The notes beneath the pieces are model-generated. The model was not told the origin of the DNA and did no database searches. It was given only the letters and a program-made list of their open reading frames with translations. A stretch of 64,000 nt of DNA, taken from contig NZ_ATVN01000010.1 of assembly GCF_000420745.1 (NCBI RefSeq), positions 62,001 to 126,000 on the forward strand. Direction: 5' to 3'. The DNA is from Pseudorhodobacter ferrugineus DSM 5888. Its GTDB lineage: Bacteria; Pseudomonadota; Alphaproteobacteria; Rhodobacterales; Rhodobacteraceae. The position numbers and the translations under genes were made by a program. Shown piece by piece: positions 8,113-19,447 of the stretch (position 1 is its first letter; each line of letters opens with the position of its first letter).

Positions 8113-9186
8113 ATGGCAGATTTCGACAGCAAGATCCGCGAAAGTCAGGATCAGGTGGCTAAGGCCCAGACCAAGATTTCCGAAATTACCAGCCGGATCG
8201 AAGTGGCCCGCGCCAAAATTGAGGCAGGCGAGGCCGCGATCGACGTGGAAAATGCCACGCTGGATGATGTGCATCAGCATACCGATCTGATGAACGCCAA
8301 TATCGCAGACCTGATTATGGGCTTGGATGATGTGACCGCCGGATTTTCGCGCGATTTTGATGAGATGCGCAATAAGACGGGCATGGAAAGTTTCATCGGC
8401 ATTTTTTCCAACGCCAAAGCCGAATCCTTGCGCCAGGAACGGATGCGCAGCGCGTCGATTGACGACAAGTTGCAGGATTTGATTGGCAAATCCGACATCA
8501 TCGTCAAACTGCTTCAGGGCCAGCTGGACATGCTGAACACGCAGAAAACCAGTGTGGAAACCAATCTGACCGCAACCTTGGATGAACGCGAAGCGACCGT
8601 GGGCAGCCTTGAGGGTGTGCGCGCTGAAATCTCGGGCATGGACCCCAAGATCATCGAGCTGGAAAACAAAATCAGCGTTGAACAAGATGCTGCCAAGCGT
8701 ACCAAGCTGGAAAGCGAATTGGCGGGGTTGAACACCCGCTACAACGCGCTTGTGCAGCAAGAACAGGTCGATCTGGCCAAGTCGCAAACCCTTGAACGCT
8801 ATATCGAAAAGGGCAAAACCTGGATGGACAGCTTGCAAAACCAAGCCGCCACCCAAATGGTCCTGATCAACAAGCTGCAAACCGATACCAAGCAGCGGGT
8901 GGTTTTGTATGACGCCCTGACGTCATCCTTGAAAACCGCGCAACAGCAGGATGTGGCCCACCGCATCAATGAAATCGGTGTGAAAACCGACCAAGAAGCG
9001 CAGGCCGCGATGGCTGCCATCGGCACCGCCACCAACAACCGCATGGCCGATATGATGGAGGCGCACGAGGATCACATGGTCTTTGCCCGCAAGATATTGG
9101 AGCAAAAGGCCAAGGCCGATGAACGCTTTGCCCGCCGATTTGCCAGCATTGTCGAAAAGCACGACAAAAACCAATACGGCGGCTGA
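8113..9186 (+). CDS. Long coiled-coil protein of unknown function, first gene of the AAA/membrane operon
   Basis: A 357-residue, highly charged, almost entirely helical protein with no signal peptide or membrane segment. Heptad-rich stretches cover about residues 3-60, 125-245 and 270-345. A less helical insert (TGMESFIGIFSNAKAESLRQ) lies near residues 92-111. The overall plan recalls TelA-type toxic-anion resistance proteins and also membrane-remodelling coiled coils such as PspA, but I see no decisive motif, so both are only guesses. ATG 8113 stands behind TCGGAGG, while the open frame upstream to 7906 crosses the panC repeat and is not credible. The next gene begins two bases after its stop. 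Confidence 0.85.
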   Translation: MADFDSKIRESQDQVAKAQTKISEITSRIEVARAKIEAGEAAIDVENATLDDVHQHTDLMNANIADLIMGLDDVTAGFSRDFDEMRNKTGMESFIGIFSNAKAESLRQERMRSASIDDKLQDLIGKSDIIVKLLQGQLDMLNTQKTSVETNLTATLDEREATVGSLEGVRAEISGMDPKIIELENKISVEQDAAKRTKLESELAGLNTRYNALVQQEQVDLAKSQTLERYIEKGKTWMDSLQNQAATQMVLINKLQTDTKQRVVLYDALTSSLKTAQQQDVAHRINEIGVKTDQEAQAAMAAIGTATNNRMADMMEAHEDHMVFARKILEQKAKADERFARRFASIVEKHDKNQYGG

Positions 9187-9187
9187 G

Positions 9188-9430
9188 ATGCGGCTGTGGC
9201 GGGCGACATTGCGCGCGCTGAACGTGTTTTACATCATGTTCTTTGGCGAAGGCGACCGCTGGTCGGTTTGGGCCGTGGTCATGGCCTGCTTGGGCGCTTT
9301 GTACCTTGGGGCGGTCACGGATGGTTTTGCCGTGCCCCCCAATATGGGCCAAGTCGGGTTTCTGGTGGTGTTTGTCGCCATCAGCGCCATCGGTGTCTAT
9401 ATTCGCCGCAACAGGAAAGATGAGCCGTGA
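9188..9430 (+). CDS. Small inner-membrane protein with two predicted helices
   Basis: An 80-residue protein: MRLWRATLRALNVFYIMFFG, a first membrane helix (WSVWAVVMACLGALYLGA), a short loop (VTDGFAVPPNMGQ), a second helix (GFLVVFVAISAIGVYI) and a basic tail RRNRKDEP. I do not recognise the family. ATG 9188 lies one base behind the coiled-coil gene stop, and its own stop overlaps the next start as GTGA, which argues strongly that it is expressed as part of the operon. It could anchor the soluble partners encoded on either side. Confidence 0.8.
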   Translation: MRLWRATLRALNVFYIMFFGEGDRWSVWAVVMACLGALYLGAVTDGFAVPPNMGQVGFLVVFVAISAIGVYIRRNRKDEP

Positions 9431-10551
9431 ACACGCTGACCGACGATCACGCAGAGCTTTACGATACCGCCATCGTCCGGCGCTATTTCGACAAGTTTGA
9501 CAAAATCACCGGCCATCTGGGCCGTGTCGCTGCTGAATTGGAGGGCGAAGGCGCGTTGACCAAGCTCGATGCGCGGGTGATCGGAGCTTATATACAGCGG
9601 CTGAACCTGACGTTCCAATCTTTGGGCTATAAATACCTGATGACAGGCCGGATTGATGGGCCGTTACCGGGCAAGCTGACCTTTGATCGCCACGAATCCG
9701 GTTTCCCCATCGCGCAGGAACTGCTGGTCATGGCAAATGACGCGCAGCAGGCCGAAAAACACCTCGCGCAATTGCCATCTGAATCCGAGATCAAGGATGC
9801 GATGATCCGGCAAATCGTCGGTGAACTGGCCATTCCCACCCGCCTGCAATTCACCATGTCACAGCGCCTGTATTATGAAAGCCTGCGATCGGGCTTGCAA
9901 TTTTGGGCGCGCAATGATGCCGATGTGCAATGGCTGGGCGAAACCAAGGATCGGCGATCCTGGCTGGTGCATTGGGCTGTTTATGACACCCAAACCAACC
10001 TGCCCGTGATCTATCTGATGAACCTTGAGGACAGCGGCAAAACCCCATTGCCCCGCGATGACAGGCGCTGGCCGCAGGTGCAGGCGCATCTGATGGCGCA
10101 AAGTTTTGACGGGCTGAAACTGGTCACAATCGCCAAGGGGTTTGATACAGATTTCGACGATCTTCACCCCAAACGCCTGCGCCGCATCCACCTTGGCCCG
10201 ATGTATTCCAGCAGCTTCACCCTGCAATCGGGACCGATTTCGGATGTTTTGGCCGATGCCAAGCCCGAGCCGGGGCAGGATTGGGCGCTGGTCTGGACAG
10301 TCGAGGATTTGCTGGCCGAGCGCGAAGAAACCGTGAAAACTGGCTGGTTTTCCTCGTCCGAGCGCCAGATTTTCGCCTCTAGCCCTTTTGCGGGCAAGAC
10401 GCTGGCCGATATTGGCGCCACCAGCATGGACCGGATGCTGATTATGCCCGAACGCCCGTTTCAGGCCTTGGCCGAAAAGCGCCCCGCAGGCTTTGCCGAT
10501 GTTCGTAAATTTGTGGTGGGCGCGGGTGGCCGCGTCATTCCGCAGCGTTAA
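9427..10551 (+). CDS. Conserved-looking soluble protein of unknown function in the AAA operon
   Basis: A 374-residue protein with GTG start 9427 overlapping the upstream stop. The N-terminal third is helical (YDTAIVRRYFDKFDKITGHL, LDARVIGAYIQRLNL). The middle has a mixed alpha/beta block with SWLVHWAVYDTQTNLPVIYL and FDGLKLVTIAKGFDTDFDDL, and HPKRLRRIHLGPMYSS. The C-terminus includes SERQIFASSPFAGKTLADIG and FVVGAGGRVIPQR. No catalytic motif, signal or membrane segment is visible and I do not recognise a family. Its place between a membrane anchor and an AAA+ ATPase gene suggests an adaptor or substrate-recognition part of the same assembly. That is inference from gene order only. Confidence 0.85.
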   Translation: MNTLTDDHAELYDTAIVRRYFDKFDKITGHLGRVAAELEGEGALTKLDARVIGAYIQRLNLTFQSLGYKYLMTGRIDGPLPGKLTFDRHESGFPIAQELLVMANDAQQAEKHLAQLPSESEIKDAMIRQIVGELAIPTRLQFTMSQRLYYESLRSGLQFWARNDADVQWLGETKDRRSWLVHWAVYDTQTNLPVIYLMNLEDSGKTPLPRDDRRWPQVQAHLMAQSFDGLKLVTIAKGFDTDFDDLHPKRLRRIHLGPMYSSSFTLQSGPISDVLADAKPEPGQDWALVWTVEDLLAEREETVKTGWFSSSERQIFASSPFAGKTLADIGATSMDRMLIMPERPFQALAEKRPAGFADVRKFVVGAGGRVIPQR

Positions 10552-10566
10552 AATTAAGGATTTGTT

Positions 10567-12504
10567 ATGACCACCCGTGACACGATGGAATTGCGCGAAG
10601 ACGATATCACGTCGCATTACCTTGCGGCGACCGAAATGCTGATGGGGGTTGACCATACCCCCCGCATTGGAACGGCGCGCTTTTCAGTGATAGCACCCGA
10701 AGCCTCGCCAGGGGTGGCCTCGATGACGCGCAGGTTCCGGTCCACCACGCCCGGTTTGGTGACGCGCAGCACCGCGCAAGCGACAGGGGTGCGCCTGCTG
10801 GACCGGATCGCCGAAAAGGATGATGATGATCCCCTCACCTCGCCCATTCAGGCCACGGTGGCCCAAGGGTTGCGCCGCGCGCTGTCTATCGCCTTGGCCG
10901 TGGGGCAGGAATATGCCCGCCAGACGCCACTTGTGGAGTTGAAAAAAGCCAACCTCGAAGGGCGCTTGCCCGTTGACCGAAAGCCCGAATTTACCGAACT
11001 TCTGGCGGCTGAGGCCTTGGCCGTCCTCTATACCTTCGGCAACGCCACTGCCTTTTTGCTGGCATCCCAAGCAAGCGAACGCACAGCCGAGATTGACCCC
11101 GTGGTTGAGGTGCTTACCGACAACGCCCCCCTCGCGCTGCATGGCGCGCTGTGGGAATTGGATCAGGCCATCGCCGCCCATGCCAGTGATGACGCTTCGC
11201 TGGTTGCTACCGTGTTGGCCTATGCCGAACAGCTGATGGCAAAGGTCGCCCTGCGCGGTCAGGATGCCCCGCGTATTGCCGGATTTACCGCAGCCAGTTG
11301 GCGGGTGGAGGCGGACAAGCTGACCATCGCAGGGTTCAAACCCGCGCTGGCCGCCCGTGGCACCGCCCTGACGATGACGTTCAAAAAACCGAACGAGGTG
11401 GTCGGCAACCACATCGCCAAATACCAATCCTTGCGGCTGGCGAAAATGCTGATGGCCTATGATTTTGACCGCAAACTGAACCCCTTTGCCGAAATGGGCG
11501 GGTTTATTTTCACCTTCATGGGTGATGGCGCGCCGGGTACGGGTAAAACCACGCTGATCCAGATGATGGCGGGATTGCTGAATGATTACTGCAAGGCGGC
11601 GGGTTACCCCTTCCGCTATCAGAATTTTTCCATCGACCAAATCGACAGCTATCAAGGCAAATCCGGCCAAAACGCCAAGGCCTTTATCACCAATGTTTTG
11701 GACCCCGCCGTGATCGGTTTTGGCACCATTGATGACATCGACCAAATCGCAGGCAAACGCGGCGACAAGCAATCGAGCGCGGGTCAGCAAGAGGTGACAG
11801 CCGTGTTCATGGAGGCCTTTGCCGGTGCCAATACGGTCGTGCGCGGTAACTGTACCTTTGGGATGTTTTCGAATTATCCTGAAAACGTCGATGATGCCCT
11901 GCGCCAACGGGCTGGTGCCCGCTTCCTCGTCGACGGCCCGCAAACCCGCGATGATTACATCGACATCCTTGCCCTGCTGATGGGCAAAAACCACGACATC
12001 CCCGTGGGCCAGCATGACCTGTTCGCCGCCCAAGAAATGAAACGCGCCGTCGCCGCCAGCTTTGAAGGTCACGCCCGCCCGCATGAAGACGGGTTGCTGC
12101 GCGTCTGGGATCAGGTCGGGCGTGATATCGGTCGCTTGGATACCATCGCCAAGCTGGGCGCCTACCTGAAAGCCATCCAAGAGGCCGACCCCCGCTTTAC
12201 CGGCCGCGCGATCAAAAACATCACCGACGCCGTCAAGGTCCGCGCGATGGATTTTGAATTGCCGGATGCGTGGATGGAACAGCCGGACCTGTTCCTGTTC
12301 AAAGGCTATGATGAGAAACTAGCGATGATCCGTGGCATGACCCAAAAGATTACCGTCGATATGGTGGTGCAGGAAATCAACCGCTACGCCGATTCAGAAT
12401 TCCGCTATGCCGATAAGTCGGATGAGGTGGCGATTTCGAACATGGTCCGCGATTTCGGGCGACAGGAAGAGGCCAAGCGGCGGTACTTGGAGGGGAAGGG
12501 GTAG
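10567..12504 (+). CDS. AAA+ ATPase with long helical N-terminal region
   Basis: A 645-residue protein. Residues 1-310 lack recognisable motifs and are mostly helical. The AAA+ core follows: Walker A GDGAPGTGKTT (about 319-329), Walker B region GFGTIDDIDQIAGKRGD (about 384-400) in the classical AAA form with paired acids, sensor-1-like FSNYPENVDDALRQR (about 437-451) with candidate arginine fingers, and a C-terminal helical lid to about 560. The extra tail includes VVQEINRYADSEFRYADKSD. It fits a classical AAA remodelling ATPase (Vps4/katanin/FtsH-like core) rather than MoxR, but no protease domain or membrane helix is present. AAGGA precedes ATG 10567. The element at about 12520-12583 separates it from the downstream half of the operon. 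Confidence 0.92.
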   Translation: MTTRDTMELREDDITSHYLAATEMLMGVDHTPRIGTARFSVIAPEASPGVASMTRRFRSTTPGLVTRSTAQATGVRLLDRIAEKDDDDPLTSPIQATVAQGLRRALSIALAVGQEYARQTPLVELKKANLEGRLPVDRKPEFTELLAAEALAVLYTFGNATAFLLASQASERTAEIDPVVEVLTDNAPLALHGALWELDQAIAAHASDDASLVATVLAYAEQLMAKVALRGQDAPRIAGFTAASWRVEADKLTIAGFKPALAARGTALTMTFKKPNEVVGNHIAKYQSLRLAKMLMAYDFDRKLNPFAEMGGFIFTFMGDGAPGTGKTTLIQMMAGLLNDYCKAAGYPFRYQNFSIDQIDSYQGKSGQNAKAFITNVLDPAVIGFGTIDDIDQIAGKRGDKQSSAGQQEVTAVFMEAFAGANTVVRGNCTFGMFSNYPENVDDALRQRAGARFLVDGPQTRDDYIDILALLMGKNHDIPVGQHDLFAAQEMKRAVAASFEGHARPHEDGLLRVWDQVGRDIGRLDTIAKLGAYLKAIQEADPRFTGRAIKNITDAVKVRAMDFELPDAWMEQPDLFLFKGYDEKLAMIRGMTQKITVDMVVQEINRYADSEFRYADKSDEVAISNMVRDFGRQEEAKRRYLEGKG

Positions 12505-12519
12505 GATGGTCACTTTGGC

Positions 12520-12583
12520 AAGCGCCGAGGGGCTGTCTGCCCCCCGGACCCCCCGAGGATATTTGGGCCGAAAAGAAAGCGTT
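12520..12583 (+). repeat. Dispersed 3'-end element, variant tail, inside the AAA operon
   Basis: A GGGGCTGTCTGCCCC hairpin is followed by GACCCCCCGAGGATATTTGG and GCCGAAAAGAAAGCG. The same variant tail occurs inverted at 21908, behind mbfA. Here it lies between two genes of one apparent operon, so it may reduce read-through from the ATPase gene. Confidence 0.65.
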
Positions 12584-12603
12584 TGGGGTTTGGGGAGAGA
12601 GTC

Positions 12604-12930
12604 ATGGAGATTCTAATCCTCACCACCCTAACCCTCGCCGCCTTCGCCTTCATCACCTTCCTCGTGGTCCCCTTCGTCACCCGCCCCGCCATGCTGTTTG
12701 ACAAAGGCCCCGCACATGCCCGCATCATGGGCATCCTCATCTGTGCCATCACGGCGATTATTGTGCTTTTCTTGCTAAACCCCGACCATCTCACCGACCT
12801 GAAACCCCGCGCGTGGGAGGCCACGGCCCTTGCCGGATTTTCCGCCATATTCTGGCTTCCGTGGTATCTTTACGCCTTCACCCGCCGCGCCAAAATTGTC
12901 AAAGCCACCACCCCGAGGGATCCATCATGA
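12604..12930 (+). CDS. Small membrane protein with three predicted helices
   Basis: A 108-residue protein. Helices are at about residues 2-25 (LILTTLTLAAFAFITFLVVP), 41-60 (MGILICAITAIIVLFLL) and 73-95 (ATALAGFSAIFWLPWYLYAF), followed by the basic tail TRRAKIVKATTPRDPS. I do not recognise a family. ATG 12604 is preceded by GGGGAGAG. The stop overlaps the next start as ATGA, so it is coupled to the following gene. Confidence 0.8.
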   Translation: MEILILTTLTLAAFAFITFLVVPFVTRPAMLFDKGPAHARIMGILICAITAIIVLFLLNPDHLTDLKPRAWEATALAGFSAIFWLPWYLYAFTRRAKIVKATTPRDPS

Positions 12931-14300
12931 AGCGCCTCATAGAAAAAGGTCTGATGTTCGGGAACTTGGTCGAGGTGTCTTCGCCCGCCCTGATCGAACG
13001 CTATAACCGCGCGTTGGACCATCTGTGCGGTAAGCAAACCAAGCTTACCGATTTTCACATCGATATCTCCGGCTATTCTCCCGAAATCGGGGATGAGTTG
13101 GGTGATGATCGTTACCTCAACCCCAATGGCTGCAACCGTCAGTTTATCCTGCTGACCACGGCGCAGAAAACCGCACCTTTGCTCAACGTCACCTTCTCCA
13201 CCTCGCGTGGCGTTCTGCGGCAGTTTATCGACGCGAATGAGGCGCAATTGTTCGCCCTGACGGCCCGCGATGCCGTGGCGGGGGAACTTGCCAATAGCGT
13301 TTATGAGGTGTCCAACCCCGCCCGCTTGCTGGATATTCGCCGCATCACGATTGAGGCGGATACGATTGGTGGCCATGTTGCCGATGCGGCTAAACTGGGC
13401 CAAATGATTGACCGTTTCCGCACCCAGCCGAATGGCTGGCGCGATGATGTGCTGATTGCCGAAATGATCGGGCTGGCCAAACGCACAGGCGATGTAACCC
13501 GCGTGCCGATTGCTTTGCCGAAAATGGCGTTTGAACAGGCAAATTTCTGGACCGCGCATTTCGGCGGGCTGTATGTGTTTCGCGATAACAAAGTGCCTGC
13601 AGTGATTTCCGTGCTGCCCAAGGAATCGCTGGGTGATGTGCCAATCGGGCAGGTGATGGACATCACCAACCGCAATCAAATCGCCGATTGGCTGGAAAAA
13701 AACGGGCTGGTCGAACCTATCGTCAAGGCGCGCGGCATGGATTGCGCCGCCGTGCTGCGCCAGAAAATGGATTTCATTCTGGTCGATGCCGCCGATGCGC
13801 TGAACCTAGATTTAGGCAACGCCACCCGCAACGACCTGCGCAAAATCGCCCAGCGTCTGGGCGCTGACCTGCCCGAAGAATTCCGTGGCCTTGCCCGTCT
13901 GCTTGCTTGGGTCGAAGGCGGCGGCGACTGGCCGCGTATCACATCCGAACACCCTGCCTATTTCTATACCTTGCGCGCGCGGCCCCATGCCGATCGCGAT
14001 TTGGTGAACATGCTTTTGGCCCAACTTGCCCCCTTGGATGTGCGCCAGATGTTCATCACGCATAAGGAATTGTTCTATACAAACTATGCCCGCTGGTCCG
14101 ACCGCAAACGCGGTTATGTTGCCGATTTTCTGGAACGCGAGTATCAAGTGGATAAGGCAGGTGCCCGCGCCGCCCTGTTTGGCCCCGAGCCGGGCATGGA
14201 CGCGGTGGAACGCCCCGACCCAAGACCTGCGCCGAAACCCGCGCGCTCCATGACCGACCTTGTCGGTCCTTGGGGCTCTGTCCGAAAGGCCCGCCGATGA
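12927..14300 (+). CDS. DUF6638-like protein of unknown function
   Basis: A 457-residue soluble protein. The start MKRLIEKGLMFGNLVEVSSP, the block LTDFHIDISGYSPEIGDELG, the block YLNPNGCNRQFILLTTAQKT and the piece LLDIRRITIEAD match my memory of a family annotated DUF6638 in Rhodobacterales; that label needs checking. There is no known activity and no obvious catalytic motif, signal peptide or membrane segment. The last 40 residues are Pro/Arg-rich. ATG 12927 overlaps the upstream stop (ATGA), and its own stop overlaps the next gene in the same way. Such tight coupling on both sides to membrane proteins suggests a peripheral membrane complex. Confidence 0.85.
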   Translation: MKRLIEKGLMFGNLVEVSSPALIERYNRALDHLCGKQTKLTDFHIDISGYSPEIGDELGDDRYLNPNGCNRQFILLTTAQKTAPLLNVTFSTSRGVLRQFIDANEAQLFALTARDAVAGELANSVYEVSNPARLLDIRRITIEADTIGGHVADAAKLGQMIDRFRTQPNGWRDDVLIAEMIGLAKRTGDVTRVPIALPKMAFEQANFWTAHFGGLYVFRDNKVPAVISVLPKESLGDVPIGQVMDITNRNQIADWLEKNGLVEPIVKARGMDCAAVLRQKMDFILVDAADALNLDLGNATRNDLRKIAQRLGADLPEEFRGLARLLAWVEGGGDWPRITSEHPAYFYTLRARPHADRDLVNMLLAQLAPLDVRQMFITHKELFYTNYARWSDRKRGYVADFLEREYQVDKAGARAALFGPEPGMDAVERPDPRPAPKPARSMTDLVGPWGSVRKARR

Positions 14301-14563
14301 TTGGTATGATCCGCCTTGCTGTCTTTGGGTTCATTGGCCTGACCATTATGTATTTTCTGGTCAGCATCTATTCGCGGTCCACCCAGCGCGAGGAATTGGA
14401 AAAGGAATGGGATGCGGCACAGGGACCCGGCGACCGCGAAGATTTCATCACGGCAGGCATGGCCGTCTATGAAAAAGGTCTGCGCAAGAAACTGATCTGG
14501 CTGGTCTATGTTATCCCGACGCTGGCCGTGATAGCAGCCGTGTATCTGTTGAATTTCGCCTGA
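14297..14563 (+). CDS. Small membrane protein with two predicted helices
   Basis: An 88-residue protein: helix 1 at about 3-25 (IRLAVFGFIGLTIMYFLVS), then an acidic cytoplasmic-looking loop (QREELEKEWDAAQGPGDRED) and helix 2 at about 62-86 (LIWLVYVIPTLAVIAAVYLL). ATG 14297 overlaps the preceding stop as ATGA. I do not recognise a family. It is followed after 12 bases by the DUF1523 gene. Confidence 0.8.
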   Translation: MIGMIRLAVFGFIGLTIMYFLVSIYSRSTQREELEKEWDAAQGPGDREDFITAGMAVYEKGLRKKLIWLVYVIPTLAVIAAVYLLNFA

Positions 14564-14575
14564 GAGGGAACGCCA

Positions 14576-15208
14576 ATGCGCATTGTAAAATGGACCTTTT
14601 TCACGATCATCGCTGTGCTGCTGTTTTCGTTCTTTCACTACACGCTGCCGCAGCATGACATCGTGCGCGTGGTAGGCACCGAAAACCGCCGCATTGATTT
14701 CGGCGAAAACTCGTTCTTTTGGGCCAGCCCTGATGTGGGCACGGCGGTGGATAAGAACCGCGATGTGTTTTTCATCCAGACCATCCGTGTCAACGGCAAG
14801 CCTATGGTTTACCGCAACGAAGACACCGGCTGGGGTTGGCCGCCATATTTCAAGCTGGACGGGTCCAATTTGCAAGCGCAGGCGCAAAGTCTGATTTCCA
14901 GCGCGGAAAACCCCAACTGGGTGGGGGTCACGCATTATGGATGGCGGAATGAATTTTTCACAATTTTCCCGAACGCTATCAGCATGCGTCCCGTCGCTGG
15001 GCCGGACGTGTCATTTTTTCCATGGTTCAATCTGATTTTCTTTGTCGTTCTGGCGGGGGTGCTTGGCCTTTTGTGGCGCATGTGGGCGCAGTTTCGTGAA
15101 CGCACCATCGACCCCGCGCTGGACAGCATCGGCGACACGATTGATGAGATTGACGACCGCGCCGCTAATCGGTTAAGGGTGATTGCCCGACGGGGCCAGC
15201 CGCGTTAG
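14576..15208 (+). CDS. DUF1523 family membrane protein
   Basis: A 210-residue protein with an N-terminal membrane helix (about 5-22), a periplasmic-looking domain, a second helix (about 146-168) and a charged C-terminus. The signature stretches HYTLPQHDIVRVVGTENRR, DFGENSFFWASPDVGT, YRNEDTGWGWPPYFK and VTHYGWRNEFFTIFPNA are those I recall for DUF1523, a family of unknown function largely limited to Rhodobacterales. It starts at ATG 14576 behind GAGAGGGAACGCC. It lies between the small two-helix protein and the large DUF2339 gene. Confidence 0.9.
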   Translation: MRIVKWTFFTIIAVLLFSFFHYTLPQHDIVRVVGTENRRIDFGENSFFWASPDVGTAVDKNRDVFFIQTIRVNGKPMVYRNEDTGWGWPPYFKLDGSNLQAQAQSLISSAENPNWVGVTHYGWRNEFFTIFPNAISMRPVAGPDVSFFPWFNLIFFVVLAGVLGLLWRMWAQFRERTIDPALDSIGDTIDEIDDRAANRLRVIARRGQPR

Positions 15209-15241
15209 CATTGGGCGGCGTGGTATAAGGTGGGGCATGGT

Positions 15242-18091
15242 ATGGACGAATTTTTCTTGATGGCTGGTCTGGCGATCATTGCGTTTTTGTTGATCGTGGT
15301 CCTCGTCCCCTACCTCTTTTTCTCGCATCTTGGCCTGAAATCCAAAGTCCGTGACCTCGACGCGCTTGTACGCCGGTTGCAAAGCGATCTGACCCGATTG
15401 GCAAAACAGGGGGGCGAACCAGAAGCCGCGCCCAGAACGGTGCCAAAAACAACAGCGAAAGCCGCCGCAACTTTACCCGATGCGCAAGTCTCTGAACCCA
15501 ACCCATGGCCCGCAGCCCCTACAAATCCAGTCGAGCCACCCGCCAAAACCGCCTTCAGCCTCGCTGCTGACGACAGTCAAACGCCCACAGCTTTTGTGTT
15601 CAAACCCGACCTGATCGACAACCTCACAGGCTGGTTGCGTGATAACTGGGTGCTGGCCATTGCTGCCGCATCTCTGGCGCTGGCGGGCGTTTTCATGGTC
15701 CAATACGGCATCGAAAACGGGCTTCTGACCCCGTTCTGGCGCGTTATGGGGGCGCTGACATTTGGCGCAGCACTTATTGCCGGAGGCGAGTTTATTCGCC
15801 GCAAAACAAGCGATGACGGGTCCCAAGACGGGGCAGGCGCCACCGAGTTTTTACCCTCAATCCTGTCAGGCGCGGGCATCGTTGTGCTCTATGTCGCGGT
15901 CTTTGGGGCGCGTTCGCTTTATGGGCTGATCGGCCCGATGACCACGTTCTTGGGCCTTGGCCTTGTGTCCACCATCGCGCTGGTCTTGGGCTGGTTTTAC
16001 GGCCCCGTCCTTGCCGCCGTCGGCATTCTTGGCGCGTCCCTTGCCCCGTTCATCACCGGCAGCAATTCCGATAATTCCTGGATGGTGCATTACTACCTCG
16101 CGATGGTCGCCGTGGTCGCCCTTGGCATCGACACGGTTAAACGCTGGGCATGGATTTCGGCGCTTGGCCTGATCGCCACGCTGGCAGGCTCTACCCTGCT
16201 GTGGTTTGTCAAAGGCGCCGATCTGCATTTTCTTGGCGGCGTGCTGATCACCACCTTTGCCGCCTTTGCCATCCCCGAACGCGGCCTGTTCCCCCGCCAA
16301 TCCGGCGCGGCCTTTCTTGACGCAGCCCTCACCCGCGGCAAACGCCTGCCCGAATTCCCCACCCGCCTGACCTTCGCCATGACAATCGTGGCCACCCTTG
16401 CCGCAATGGCCGTGGCGCTGAATGCCAACACCGGTGATACCGTCTGGCTCGGCCTCTACGCTCTTACCATCCTCCTGCTCGCCACCACGCTTTGGACCCG
16501 CGACGCCCCCGCATTATACGACCACGCCCTGATCCCCGGCGCAGCCCTGCTGATCACCATAGCACTCGAGGCCACGCGCTTCGGCCCACTGGCCAACGCC
16601 TTTTGGGATGCCAGCATCCCCGTTCCCGTGGGCGAGGCAACGCCCATCGAAACCCCGATCCCCGCCACGGTCTGGGTGCTGTCAGCCTTGGGCGCGCTGG
16701 GCACCATCTTGATGTTCGCCCGCATGCAATGGGCGCTGCGTGAGGATGGCCCCAAAATCGCCCCGACCTTCTGGGCCTTTTCCGCCACCGTTTTCGCCCC
16801 CGCCACCTTGCTTATCCTCGAATTCCTATGGGCCCCTGGTACGGTGCTTGGCCCCTATCCTTGGGCACTGGTCGCCATCGTCATGGCAGCCCTCATGACA
16901 GCCCTCGCCACCCTGACCGCCAAGGCAACCGACGATGACACCCCCCTGCGCACCGGCCTGTTTGCCGTGGGCGCGCTGACGCTGATCACCCTCGCCGTGT
17001 TCCTGATCCTGACCAAATCGGCGCTGACCGTTGCGCTGGCGGTCATGGTCCTTGGCACCGCAGCCCTGGATCGCCGCCACGCGCTACCGCCGCTCACCTA
17101 TTTCATCCAAATCGCCGTTGCCATCATCACCTTCCGCCTTGTCGTCTGGCCGGGGTTCGACTGGGCGCTGGGCTGGGATTACGCCAACAACACCTATGGC
17201 ATCGGGTATTTCGAACTTGCCTTCGCCTTCCTCGCCACCCTTGGCCTGCTGGCTGCTGCATGGTGGCTGTCCCGCGACCGCCGCACCAAAACCGCGCTGG
17301 TGCTGGAAAGCGCCTGCTGGACCATCCTTGGCGTGTTCCTTGCCGTGACCCTGCTGCGCATGGCCCCGCGTGAGGACGCGGCAAGCCATTGGGTGCTGGG
17401 CCTGATGTCAACCATCTGGATCGCGCTGGCTCTGAACCAAATCTACCGCATGCAAGCGGGCGGCAAGTTCATGACCATCGTCCGCACGCTGGTCGCCGCC
17501 GCCTATGGCCTCACCGCGCTCGGCACCCTTGGCTTGCTGATGACGATGTCCAACCCGCTCCTGACCTACAGCGAGCGTGTGGTCGGCCCACCCGTTTTCG
17601 ACAGCCTCGCCCTCGCCTTCCTGCCGCTGGCCGCCGTGTTTGCCGTGGCCGCATGGAAGATCAGGCATTTCGGCCGCAAGGTGCAAATCGGCTTCATCCT
17701 CGCCTCAACCTTCTTTGCCACCCTCTACATCGGCATGGAAATCCGGCGGCTCTGGCGTGGCACCAACCTTGCCGTGTCCGGTTTTTCCGACCCTGAACTT
17801 TACACCTACACCCTTGCCATGCTTATCGCCTCGGTCGGCTTGCTGATGTTCGCCTTCTCCCGCCGCTCGGATATCTTGCGCAAGGTGGCCATGGCTGGCG
17901 TGGCCCTGACCGTGGCCAAGGTCTTCTTGGTCGATATGTCCGGCCTCTCCGGCCTGATCCGCGTGATGTCCTTCATGGGCCTCGGCCTGTCGCTGGTCGG
18001 CCTTGCTTGGCTCAACCGCAAAATGACCGCGCAGTGGGAACGGGGTGGGGAACGGGGCGGGGAACAGGACCCCCCTCCACCCAAAGCGTAA
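15242..18091 (+). CDS. DUF2339 polytopic membrane protein
   Basis: A very large (949-residue) inner-membrane protein. It has an N-terminal helix (about 5-28), a Pro/Ala-rich linker (about 60-115) and then more than twenty hydrophobic helices to the C-terminus. Helix-rich proteins of this size with an N-terminal helix, linker and repeated membrane segments are annotated DUF2339; the function is unknown. A recognisable part is FLPSILSGAGIVVLYVAVFG and LVSTIALVLGWFYGPVLA. I prefer ATG 15242; the frame is open from GTG 15230. It begins 33 bases after the DUF1523 gene and is followed after nine bases by the last gene. Confidence 0.88.
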   Translation: MDEFFLMAGLAIIAFLLIVVLVPYLFFSHLGLKSKVRDLDALVRRLQSDLTRLAKQGGEPEAAPRTVPKTTAKAAATLPDAQVSEPNPWPAAPTNPVEPPAKTAFSLAADDSQTPTAFVFKPDLIDNLTGWLRDNWVLAIAAASLALAGVFMVQYGIENGLLTPFWRVMGALTFGAALIAGGEFIRRKTSDDGSQDGAGATEFLPSILSGAGIVVLYVAVFGARSLYGLIGPMTTFLGLGLVSTIALVLGWFYGPVLAAVGILGASLAPFITGSNSDNSWMVHYYLAMVAVVALGIDTVKRWAWISALGLIATLAGSTLLWFVKGADLHFLGGVLITTFAAFAIPERGLFPRQSGAAFLDAALTRGKRLPEFPTRLTFAMTIVATLAAMAVALNANTGDTVWLGLYALTILLLATTLWTRDAPALYDHALIPGAALLITIALEATRFGPLANAFWDASIPVPVGEATPIETPIPATVWVLSALGALGTILMFARMQWALREDGPKIAPTFWAFSATVFAPATLLILEFLWAPGTVLGPYPWALVAIVMAALMTALATLTAKATDDDTPLRTGLFAVGALTLITLAVFLILTKSALTVALAVMVLGTAALDRRHALPPLTYFIQIAVAIITFRLVVWPGFDWALGWDYANNTYGIGYFELAFAFLATLGLLAAAWWLSRDRRTKTALVLESACWTILGVFLAVTLLRMAPREDAASHWVLGLMSTIWIALALNQIYRMQAGGKFMTIVRTLVAAAYGLTALGTLGLLMTMSNPLLTYSERVVGPPVFDSLALAFLPLAAVFAVAAWKIRHFGRKVQIGFILASTFFATLYIGMEIRRLWRGTNLAVSGFSDPELYTYTLAMLIASVGLLMFAFSRRSDILRKVAMAGVALTVAKVFLVDMSGLSGLIRVMSFMGLGLSLVGLAWLNRKMTAQWERGGERGGEQDPPPPKA

Positions 18092-18100
18092 AGACCCCCC

Positions 18101-19447
18101 ATGTCACAGCATGAAATCGAAGACCTGATCGAGGAAACCGCCCGCCTCATCTTGACCACAGATCAAAGCCGCGCTGAAAAATGCGCTTGGATCGGTGACT
18201 TATACGCGCTTCAGTCATGGTTCGACACCTCGGAAACCACGGGCCGCCTTCAGGCCGAATTGCAGGAACTGGGCTATTTCACTGCCCCGCCTCGGCCAAG
18301 TCCCGCATTGTTGCCACTGGCAGCACAGGTGATGCAGGTTGCCGAAACGGCCAGCAGGCCCGACCTTGTCTATGACTGGCTGGCCCTGACGGTCGACGCG
18401 CTGGACAGTTTTGGCCTTGGCCCCGACATGCCGCCTACCTTTGACGCAATGCTGGCCGGTGGGTCTGGCCCTCAAATCCGCGCTGTGGCCGACCGTTGCG
18501 ATACCTTGAAAAAACGCCCCCGCGCTGCGCTGATGCAGTTGCAAACCTGGGCCTGGCTGAAAAACGGATACAGCGCCTTGGATGCCGAAACGCTGGACCT
18601 GCGGCTGATCCTGCGGTTTTTCAGCGACCCAAAAACCACGCCCGAAACCCTGCTGGCCGCCCATGCCAAAGAAATGGCCCAAATCGCCGCCTTGGCAGAT
18701 CTGCCCCTGTTCACCCTGCCCGAACGGGTGCAGGCGCGCACCGATCTTGTCTATCTGGGGATGGAACACAAACGCCACTACCGCAGGTTTGTCTTTGCGA
18801 CCACCGCTCTGGCCCCTGCGCCTACCGGCTATCGCCTGTTCTTTGTGATCGAACACAACGCCAATATTAACTTTCTGTCCTGCGAGGTCCGTGTCCAGTC
18901 TGGCGCGCTACTGGCATGGCAAGGCACAACCACCCCCGACCAAATCGCGGCCACGCATTTCCGCTTGAACTATATTCACCTGATCCATGACGATGCGTTG
19001 CAGGCCGATGCGCTTTATGATGCCTTTGGCGGGTGGAATTTCAAACTCACCCAATCGGCCAAGGTGTTGGATGTGCGGCTGGACGCGATTTTGTCACATT
19101 GGGCCTGCACTGAACCCATGCGCAGGTTTCATGCCGTGCCATTGCCGGAACACTTGGCGAAATCCACGCCCGATGCGATGGAAAAACAGCGCAAGACCCT
19201 GCGCGGTTCGGTTGGGTTTTTCATGAATGATATTGAATTGTTGTTCGCCTATGCCTGCATTGACTGGGAAAAGGGCAACCGCCCCGATGCGATGATCGCC
19301 CAAATCCGCGCGGCGCTGGACAATGTGCATAGCGATTATCCAGCAAAACCCGATTGGGTCACAGCGCTTGCCGCGCTTGAACACGGCGCCAGCTACCCCC
19401 AATCACCGCCGATGATAATGCCGTATCGAAACCTTGGTGACGGGTAA
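18101..19447 (+). CDS. Unknown protein, last gene of the operon
   Basis: A 448-residue soluble protein without signal peptide or membrane segments. The N-terminal two thirds look helical (HEIEDLIEETARLILTTDQS, AEKCAWIGDLYALQSWFD). A beta-rich block follows at about 225-330 (HYRRFVFATTALAPAPTGYR, LFFVIEHNANINFLSCEVRV). I do not recognise a family. It follows DUF2339 with nine intervening bases, so it is probably cotranscribed. It ends eight bases from the convergent nuclease gene. DUF2339 genes elsewhere are often paired with a DUF3999 gene, but this protein does not resemble it. Confidence 0.82.
   Translation: MSQHEIEDLIEETARLILTTDQSRAEKCAWIGDLYALQSWFDTSETTGRLQAELQELGYFTAPPRPSPALLPLAAQVMQVAETASRPDLVYDWLALTVDALDSFGLGPDMPPTFDAMLAGGSGPQIRAVADRCDTLKKRPRAALMQLQTWAWLKNGYSALDAETLDLRLILRFFSDPKTTPETLLAAHAKEMAQIAALADLPLFTLPERVQARTDLVYLGMEHKRHYRRFVFATTALAPAPTGYRLFFVIEHNANINFLSCEVRVQSGALLAWQGTTTPDQIAATHFRLNYIHLIHDDALQADALYDAFGGWNFKLTQSAKVLDVRLDAILSHWACTEPMRRFHAVPLPEHLAKSTPDAMEKQRKTLRGSVGFFMNDIELLFAYACIDWEKGNRPDAMIAQIRAALDNVHSDYPAKPDWVTALAALEHGASYPQSPPMIMPYRNLGDG

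What the first reader, a model, noticed from the sequence alone, without database searches (positions are those of the whole stretch)
8113..19447. Ten-gene AAA/coiled-coil/membrane operon of uncharacterised proteins
Seen: ten genes on one strand with ATGA/GTGA overlaps or short gaps (the longest, 99 bases, contains a repeat element). They encode a 357-residue coiled-coil protein, two-helix and three-helix membrane proteins, a classical AAA+ ATPase, two soluble unknowns, a DUF6638-like protein, a DUF1523 protein, a 949-residue DUF2339 membrane protein and a final unknown. Known: DUF1523 and DUF2339 have no assigned function. Inference: a membrane-associated ATP-driven machine, in which the ATPase acts on the coiled-coil protein at sites set by the small membrane proteins, would explain the parts. 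It is the strongest candidate here for an undescribed system.
Basis: partly seen in the sequence, partly recalled or inferred. Interest (0 to 1): 0.82.

Follow-up and report, generated by a model that had tools for sequence, protein, structure and literature searches.

The report
Conserved four-gene AAA/coiled-coil module
Four unstudied bacterial genes, a molecular motor, a very conserved rod-shaped protein and two proteins of unknown fold or function, have stayed together in the same order across distant bacteria and probably form an energy-driven machine linked to the cell envelope, but the ten-gene system first proposed is really this four-gene core plus changeable extras.

Summary
The ten same-strand genes exist as described, but the conserved unit is smaller. 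Its core is four soluble proteins in fixed order: coiled-coil (8113-9186), unknown (9427-10551), classical AAA ATPase (10567-12504), DUF6638 (12927-14300). The order held in every fetched locus not cut by a contig end or sequence gap, with one exception: Rhodobacteraceae, Stappia, Aestuariispira, Rhizobiaceae, Halomonas and Vibrio. In Vibrio and Rhizobiaceae the core stands without the membrane proteins; a two-helix protein and DUF1523 follow it in most Alphaproteobacteria. The other two small membrane proteins vary, and DUF2339 plus gene 10 are local additions. DUF2339 is not functionless: it is the Arc3A family, which protects Pseudomonas from phospholipase toxins. The coiled-coil protein and gene 3 match no Pfam family; gene 3 folds confidently (pLDDT 94) with no significant PDB match. 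I found no literature on DUF6638. Most likely the ATPase remodels the coiled-coil assembly in envelope maintenance or damage repair. The AAA motor is shown by sequence; its action on the coiled coil is inferred; the envelope link rests on neighbours (PspA in two loci, DUF2339, membrane proteins). PspA/ESCRT-III membership was tested and not met; TelA is a weak lead.

The parts
8113..9186 (+). core gene 1: 357-aa coiled-coil protein, no known family, conserved C-terminal tail (KHxxxxY)
   Evidence: Most conserved member: median pairwise identity 78% between Rhodobacteraceae genera. No Pfam family in 21 diverse members. Homologue in Vibrio, E 1.8e-93. Model: central helical hairpin 102-189/193-288.
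9188..9430 (+). accessory gene 2: 80-aa two-helix membrane protein
   Evidence: Position variable: 52 of 127 loci have a same-strand TM ORF between genes 1 and 3.
9427..10551 (+). core gene 3: 374-aa soluble protein, no known family
   Evidence: Present in order in all complete loci. No Pfam hit in 82 members. AF2 model pLDDT 93.8; best PDB Z 5.1.
10567..12504 (+). core gene 4: 645-aa classical AAA ATPase with about 280-aa unique N-terminal region
   Evidence: PF00004 E 2.2e-12. Nearest solved relatives fidgetin-like 1, i-AAA protease, katanin, Vps4. Walker A, pore-loop Y362, sensor N436 and R446/R448/R452 invariant; Walker B Glu replaced by Asp.
12505..12603 (.). 99-base gap with a dispersed repeat (41 genome matches)
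12604..12930 (+). accessory gene 5: 108-aa membrane protein
   Evidence: Absent between AAA and DUF6638 in many loci; 70 of 127 have some TM ORF there.
12927..14300 (+). core gene 6: DUF6638 protein, 457 aa
   Evidence: PF20343 E 5e-215; in order in all complete loci.
14297..14563 (+). frequent partner gene 7: 88-aa two-helix membrane protein
   Evidence: Found in 44 of 52 loci; median identity 43%.
14576..15208 (+). frequent partner gene 8: DUF1523 membrane protein
   Evidence: PF07509 E 1.2e-72; 48 of 52 loci; absent in Rhizobiaceae-type and Vibrio loci.
15242..18091 (+). local addition gene 9: DUF2339 (Arc3A-family) polytopic membrane protein
   Evidence: PF10101 E 4e-98; elsewhere near the module only in L068; 26 of 100 family genomes have it, mostly not linked.
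18101..19447 (+). local addition gene 10: 448-aa protein, no family
   Evidence: Only the window genome among 100 family genomes has it.

Best explanation
The unit is a four-protein, ATP-driven remodelling machine: gene 1 (coiled coil), gene 3, AAA ATPase and DUF6638. The coiled-coil protein is proposed to self-assemble. The ATPase, as a classical AAA ring, would grip its conserved C-terminal tail and use pore-loop threading to disassemble or rearrange the assembly. Gene 3 and DUF6638 would be adaptors. In most Alphaproteobacteria the two-helix protein and DUF1523 would tie the machine to the inner membrane. It would act in envelope maintenance or damage repair, alongside PspA and lysophospholipid-handling proteins. 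Shown: the conserved unit, the AAA motor motifs and the solubility of the core proteins (by hydropathy). Inferred: self-assembly, the ATPase acting on the coiled coil, and the envelope role.
For: Fixed order cc-gene3-AAA-DUF6638 in 40/40 Rhodobacteraceae loci, 11/11 further loci from several families, and 76 of 83 other loci; six of the other seven are cut by contig ends or hold a sequence gap. Vibrio and Sinorhizobium homologues at E 1e-79 to 1e-284. Flanks vary: the commonest shared flanking family occurs in 20 of 52 loci. AAA domain closest to FIGL1, i-AAA, katanin and Vps4, with invariant Walker A, pore-loop Y362, sensor N and arginines. The coiled-coil protein is the most conserved (78% median, against 73% AAA and 43-63% the others) and has a conserved tail KHxxxxY from Vibrio to Rhodobacter relatives. 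Envelope link: TetR-PspA lies next to the module in Stappia (with YiaAB and an LplT/Aas-type protein) and in Tateyamaria. DUF2339/Arc3A lies downstream in the window and nearby in L068; Arc3A prevents lysophospholipid accumulation (PMC8926400). DUF1523 follows in 48 of 52 loci.
Against: No membrane protein is universal, so a membrane role is not built into the core. PspA linkage is seen in only two lineages and was noticed after the fact. The coiled-coil protein shows no significant relation to PspA (hmmsearch E 0.05; hhalign below the reversed control). The Walker B glutamate is an aspartate, which may slow hydrolysis. No interaction was tested, and the coiled-coil model is low confidence (pLDDT 62).
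Confidence: 0.4

Rival explanations
1. A distant TelA-type (toxic anion resistance) stress system: the coiled-coil protein is a diverged TelA homologue and the ATPase is its dedicated chaperone.
For: Profile comparison gives a colinear 234-column alignment to TelA (score 32.9, probability 15%), against 23 for reversed TelA and 17 for PspA. The first weak match was a shared motif, FSxDxxxxRxxxxWExxxG. Similar order of long helices.
Against: HMMER with all filters off gives no significant match either way (E 0.03 and 0.41). No Pfam TelA hit. TelA is a separate gene in this genome and in most of the family and lies near the module in only one lineage (L057 and L187 are the same locus).
Confidence: 0.15
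2. A genuine but highly diverged ESCRT-III/PspA-Vps4 system in bacteria: the coiled coil is an ESCRT-III-fold protein and the ATPase a Vps4 counterpart.
For: Vps4 and katanin are among the AAA's nearest solved relatives. Helical hairpin. PspA linkage in two loci. Bacterial PspA with AAA partners is described (PMC11237479).
Against: No sequence relation to PspA. Only PF00004 is found in the ATPase; no MIT or Vps4 C-terminal domain. In the model the long hairpin is helices 3 and 4, after two other helices.
Confidence: 0.1
3. A cytoplasmic AAA chaperone complex for another task (assembly, DNA, or enzyme reactivation), with only incidental membrane-gene neighbours.
For: All four core proteins are soluble. 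In Vibrio and the Rhizobiaceae-type loci no DUF1523 is linked. The coiled coil resembles SMC arms and chemoreceptor rods as much as anything.
Against: DUF1523, DUF2333, PspA and DUF2339 neighbours recur and are membrane or envelope proteins.
Confidence: 0.25
4. An anti-phage or other conflict system.
For: Patchy presence (104 of 248 family genera); variable flanks; insertion of a ParE-type gene or mobile element in some loci.
Against: PADLOC gives only weak coiled-coil or generic AAA matches. Core proteins look too conserved for an arms race. No phage homologue of the coiled-coil protein.
Confidence: 0.07

Closest known systems
PspA / ESCRT-III with AAA partners (bacterial PSP neighbourhoods, PMC11237479)
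   Same: A long-helical protein encoded next to a AAA ATPase, with membrane-protein neighbours; PspA itself is adjacent in two loci.
   Different: The coiled-coil protein is not detectably PspA or Snf7; two further core proteins (gene 3, DUF6638) have no counterpart there; the AAA lacks MIT and Vps4 C-terminal domains.
Arc3 (DUF2339/Arc3A, PA5114-PA5113; PMC8926400)
   Same: Gene 9 in the window is a DUF2339 protein, the Arc3A family.
   Different: Arc3A is not part of the conserved core; no recognisable Arc3B partner in the ten genes; Arc3 is not known to involve a AAA ATPase.
TelA / KlaA toxic anion resistance proteins (PF05816)
   Same: Helical architecture and a weak colinear profile alignment with a shared loop motif.
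   Different: Not significant; TelA is present as a separate gene and has no linked AAA module.
Classical AAA ATPases of the FIGL1/katanin/Vps4 and FtsH groups
   Same: AAA core, Walker A, aromatic pore loop, sensor 1 Asn, arginine-finger region.
   Different: Unique roughly 280-residue N-terminal region; invariant Asp in place of the Walker B Glu; own gene context.

Membership tests
PspA/IM30 - ESCRT-III superfamily | Profile match of the coiled-coil protein to PF04012 or a PspA profile | tested here: not met
   No PF04012 hit; hmmsearch with filters off best E 0.05; hhalign 17.2, below the reversed TelA control.
PspA/IM30 - ESCRT-III superfamily | ESCRT-III helix order and fold | tested here: inconclusive
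   Model pLDDT 62 only; hairpin is helices 3/4; no significant PDB match.
Vps4 | Classical AAA domain with aromatic pore loop and arginine fingers | tested here: met
Vps4 | N-terminal MIT and Vps4 C-terminal domains | tested here: not met
   Pfam scan finds only PF00004 above threshold.
TelA (PF05816) | Significant profile match | tested here: inconclusive
   No Pfam hit; profile-profile probability 15%, colinear over 234 columns.
Arc3 system | DUF2339 protein (Arc3A) | tested here: met
   Gene 9, PF10101 E 4e-98.
Arc3 system | Adjacent Arc3B (PF13163) | tested here: not met
   No PF13163 hit in any of the ten proteins; homologues without Arc3B exist (PMC8926400).
Arc3 system | Protection against phospholipase toxins | not testable with these tools
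   Needs a bench test.
Known anti-phage systems (PADLOC) | Match of core components to a defence system | tested here: not met
   Only weak generic matches, TRIP13-type AAA 3e-4 and coiled coils.

The most novel reading that the evidence does not exclude
A previously undescribed energy-driven polymer machine of bacteria, unrelated to ESCRT-III/PspA: a new coiled-coil filament family, its own AAA disassembly motor and two adaptors with new folds, devoted to envelope repair.
Probability: 0.25. Interest if true: 0.85.

Novelty: new variant of a known kind. Interest (0 to 1): 0.58.

Why it matters
If the inference holds, common marine and soil bacteria (about 42% of sampled Rhodobacteraceae genera, plus Rhizobiaceae, Halomonas and Vibrio) carry a AAA-driven remodelling machine that nobody has studied. 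It would be a second bacterial solution to the problem solved by ESCRT-III/Vps4. It would also link phospholipid-damage defence (Arc3A, LplT/Aas) and PspA to an ATP-driven motor. The core is small enough to reconstitute.

Tried and rejected
ESCRT-III/PspA by sequence: rejected. TelA: kept only as a weak lead. Fold search with the coiled-coil model gave generic long-helix matches (SMC, chemoreceptors, alpha-pore-forming toxins; Z up to 12.6, below the helical-bundle caution level); not used. Gene 3 fold search found no significant PDB or viral match; its 173-337 part resembles T-fold sheets (uricase, GTP cyclohydrolase, dihydroneopterin aldolase) at Z 4-5 only; not used. Gene 3 and DUF6638 show no relation to each other. 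The profile of the AAA alignment found no PDB chain at E 0.001, whereas the single sequence did. Literature: no paper with DUF6638; DUF1523 and DUF2333 papers give no function. A terminator and promoter scan found no more than chance.

Full report
OBSERVATION. The ten ORFs are present exactly as described at 8113-19447 on the + strand. They overlap by 4 bases or lie 1-33 bases apart, apart from one 99-base gap between the ATPase and gene 5. That gap holds a dispersed repeat with 41 matches in the genome. Pfam places AAA, DUF6638, DUF1523 and DUF2339; the other six proteins have no family, and NCBIfam and PADLOC add nothing specific.

THE CONSERVED UNIT. I took 20-kb neighbourhoods around the ATPase in 40 genera of the family. 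All 40 keep coiled coil - gene 3 - ATPase - DUF6638 in this order, with DUF1523 following in all 40 and gene 7 in nearly all; the DUF2339 gene is near in one (L068) and gene 10 in none. The ATPase occurs in 104 of 248 family genera. Searches outside the family, plus three more family members, found the same order in 11 of 11 further loci. They include Aestuariispira, Stappia, Roseibium/Labrenzia and Halomonas. Plasmid-collection records added Sinorhizobium, Shinella, Rhizobium and Vibrio. Of 83 loci scanned, 76 have all four genes in order. Six others are cut by contig ends or hold a sequence gap. One (L175) has only the ATPase on its contig, while that genome carries the coiled-coil gene on another contig. 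In all, 127 loci hold the four genes in order; a few are the same locus fetched twice.

Vibrio and Rhizobiaceae loci have the four core genes without gene 7 or DUF1523. Flanking genes differ: the commonest shared flanking family occurs in 20 of 52 loci. Core proteins are 30-54% identical between the window and the most divergent Alphaproteobacterial lineages, and 28% (gene 3) to about 41% (ATPase) to Vibrio. Order kept over that distance while flanks change is strong evidence of a functional unit.

WHAT IS NOT CORE. Genes 2 and 5 are variable: a same-strand ORF with a transmembrane segment lies between genes 1 and 3 in 52 of 127 loci and between the ATPase and DUF6638 in 70 of 127. These two gaps are also insertion spots: a ParE-type gene in L071, a sulfotransferase and an RTX/beta-helix protein in L067, an IS4 element in Sinorhizobium. 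DUF2339 occurs in 26 of 100 family genomes, mostly elsewhere in the genome. Gene 10 was found in no other of 100 family genomes. DUF2339 is the Arc3A family: in Pseudomonas aeruginosa it prevents accumulation of lysophospholipids made by the phospholipase toxin Tle3 (PMC8926400).

THE PROTEINS. The ATPase domain is nearest by sequence to fidgetin-like 1, i-AAA protease, katanin and Vps4. Walker A (GDGxPGTGKTT), pore-loop S-Y362-Q-G-K-S, sensor N436 and R446/R448/R452 are invariant. The Walker B glutamate is aspartate in all members, including Vibrio and Sinorhizobium. About 280 N-terminal residues match nothing. The coiled-coil protein is the most conserved member (78% median identity between genera, against 73% ATPase, 63% gene 3, 61% DUF6638, 48% DUF1523). 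It ends in a conserved tail (KHxxxxY). Its model (pLDDT 62) has a confident helical hairpin at 102-189/193-288. Gene 3 has no Pfam family in 82 members and gives a very confident model (pLDDT 93.8, pTM 0.92), but no significant PDB or viral match (best Z 5.1, T-fold-like sheets).

MECHANISM. Shown: a conserved four-gene unit with a AAA motor and three partners that look soluble. Inferred: the extreme conservation and coiled-coil nature suggest a self-assembling protein; the conserved tail would be a natural handle for the ATPase ring; gene 3 and DUF6638 would be adaptors. The envelope role rests on neighbours. DUF1523 and gene 7 follow in most Alphaproteobacteria. DUF2333 follows DUF6638 in all six Rhizobiaceae-type loci examined. 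A TetR-PspA pair adjoins the module in two unrelated lineages in different arrangements: Stappia, with YiaAB and an LplT/Aas-type protein, and Tateyamaria. The window has DUF2339. A back-of-envelope estimate (about 100 genomes, 4 adjacent slots of about 3,500 genes) expects about 0.1 chance PspA adjacencies against two seen. I noticed this after the fact, so it is suggestive only.

COMPARISON. It works like a AAA/coiled-coil remodeller such as Vps4/ESCRT-III, but membership was tested and not met: no PspA profile match and no MIT or Vps4 C-terminal domain. Ravi et al. (PMC11237479) describe PspA with AAA partners; in the passages I read (an excerpt search, not the whole text), none has these four proteins. 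TelA is the best sequence lead for the coiled coil but not significant (15%).

VERDICT. The conserved system is four genes, membrane accessories vary, and one 'unknown' has a published role. A specialist would find an unstudied AAA module spread from Rhodobacteraceae to Vibrio interesting; the mechanism is not yet established.

Noticed in passing
window 10567-12504, residues D389-D390: The Walker B glutamate of the AAA ATPase is an aspartate in every family member examined, including Vibrio and Sinorhizobium.
   Followed up: partly
window 12505-12603: Dispersed repeat (about 60 bases) with 41 matches in the genome, within the operon.
   Followed up: partly
L071 3808-4358; L067 6624-11864; L168 11661-12824: Genes inserted inside the operon at the variable gaps: a ParE-type gene with an upstream ORF, a sulfotransferase plus RTX/beta-helix protein, an IS4 element.
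   Followed up: partly
L102 1646-6790; L234 5778-7141; L259 6445-8222: TetR-PspA pairs; in Stappia with YiaAB and an LplT/Aas-type lysophospholipid transporter-acyltransferase beside the module. The window genome has TetR-PspA with a small YiaA-like protein on another contig.
   Followed up: partly
L104-L107, L168, L169: DUF2333 protein directly downstream of DUF6638 in all six Rhizobiaceae-type loci.
   Followed up: partly
L175 9980-11908: ATPase copy without its partners on the contig; the coiled-coil gene lies on another contig of the same genome bin.
   Followed up: partly
L167 5014-6214: Two unknown genes directly upstream of the Vibrio core module on the same strand.
   Followed up: no
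window 9427-10551, residues 173-337 of gene 3: Sheet-helix-helix-sheet layout resembling T-fold enzymes at low Z (4-5).
   Followed up: partly
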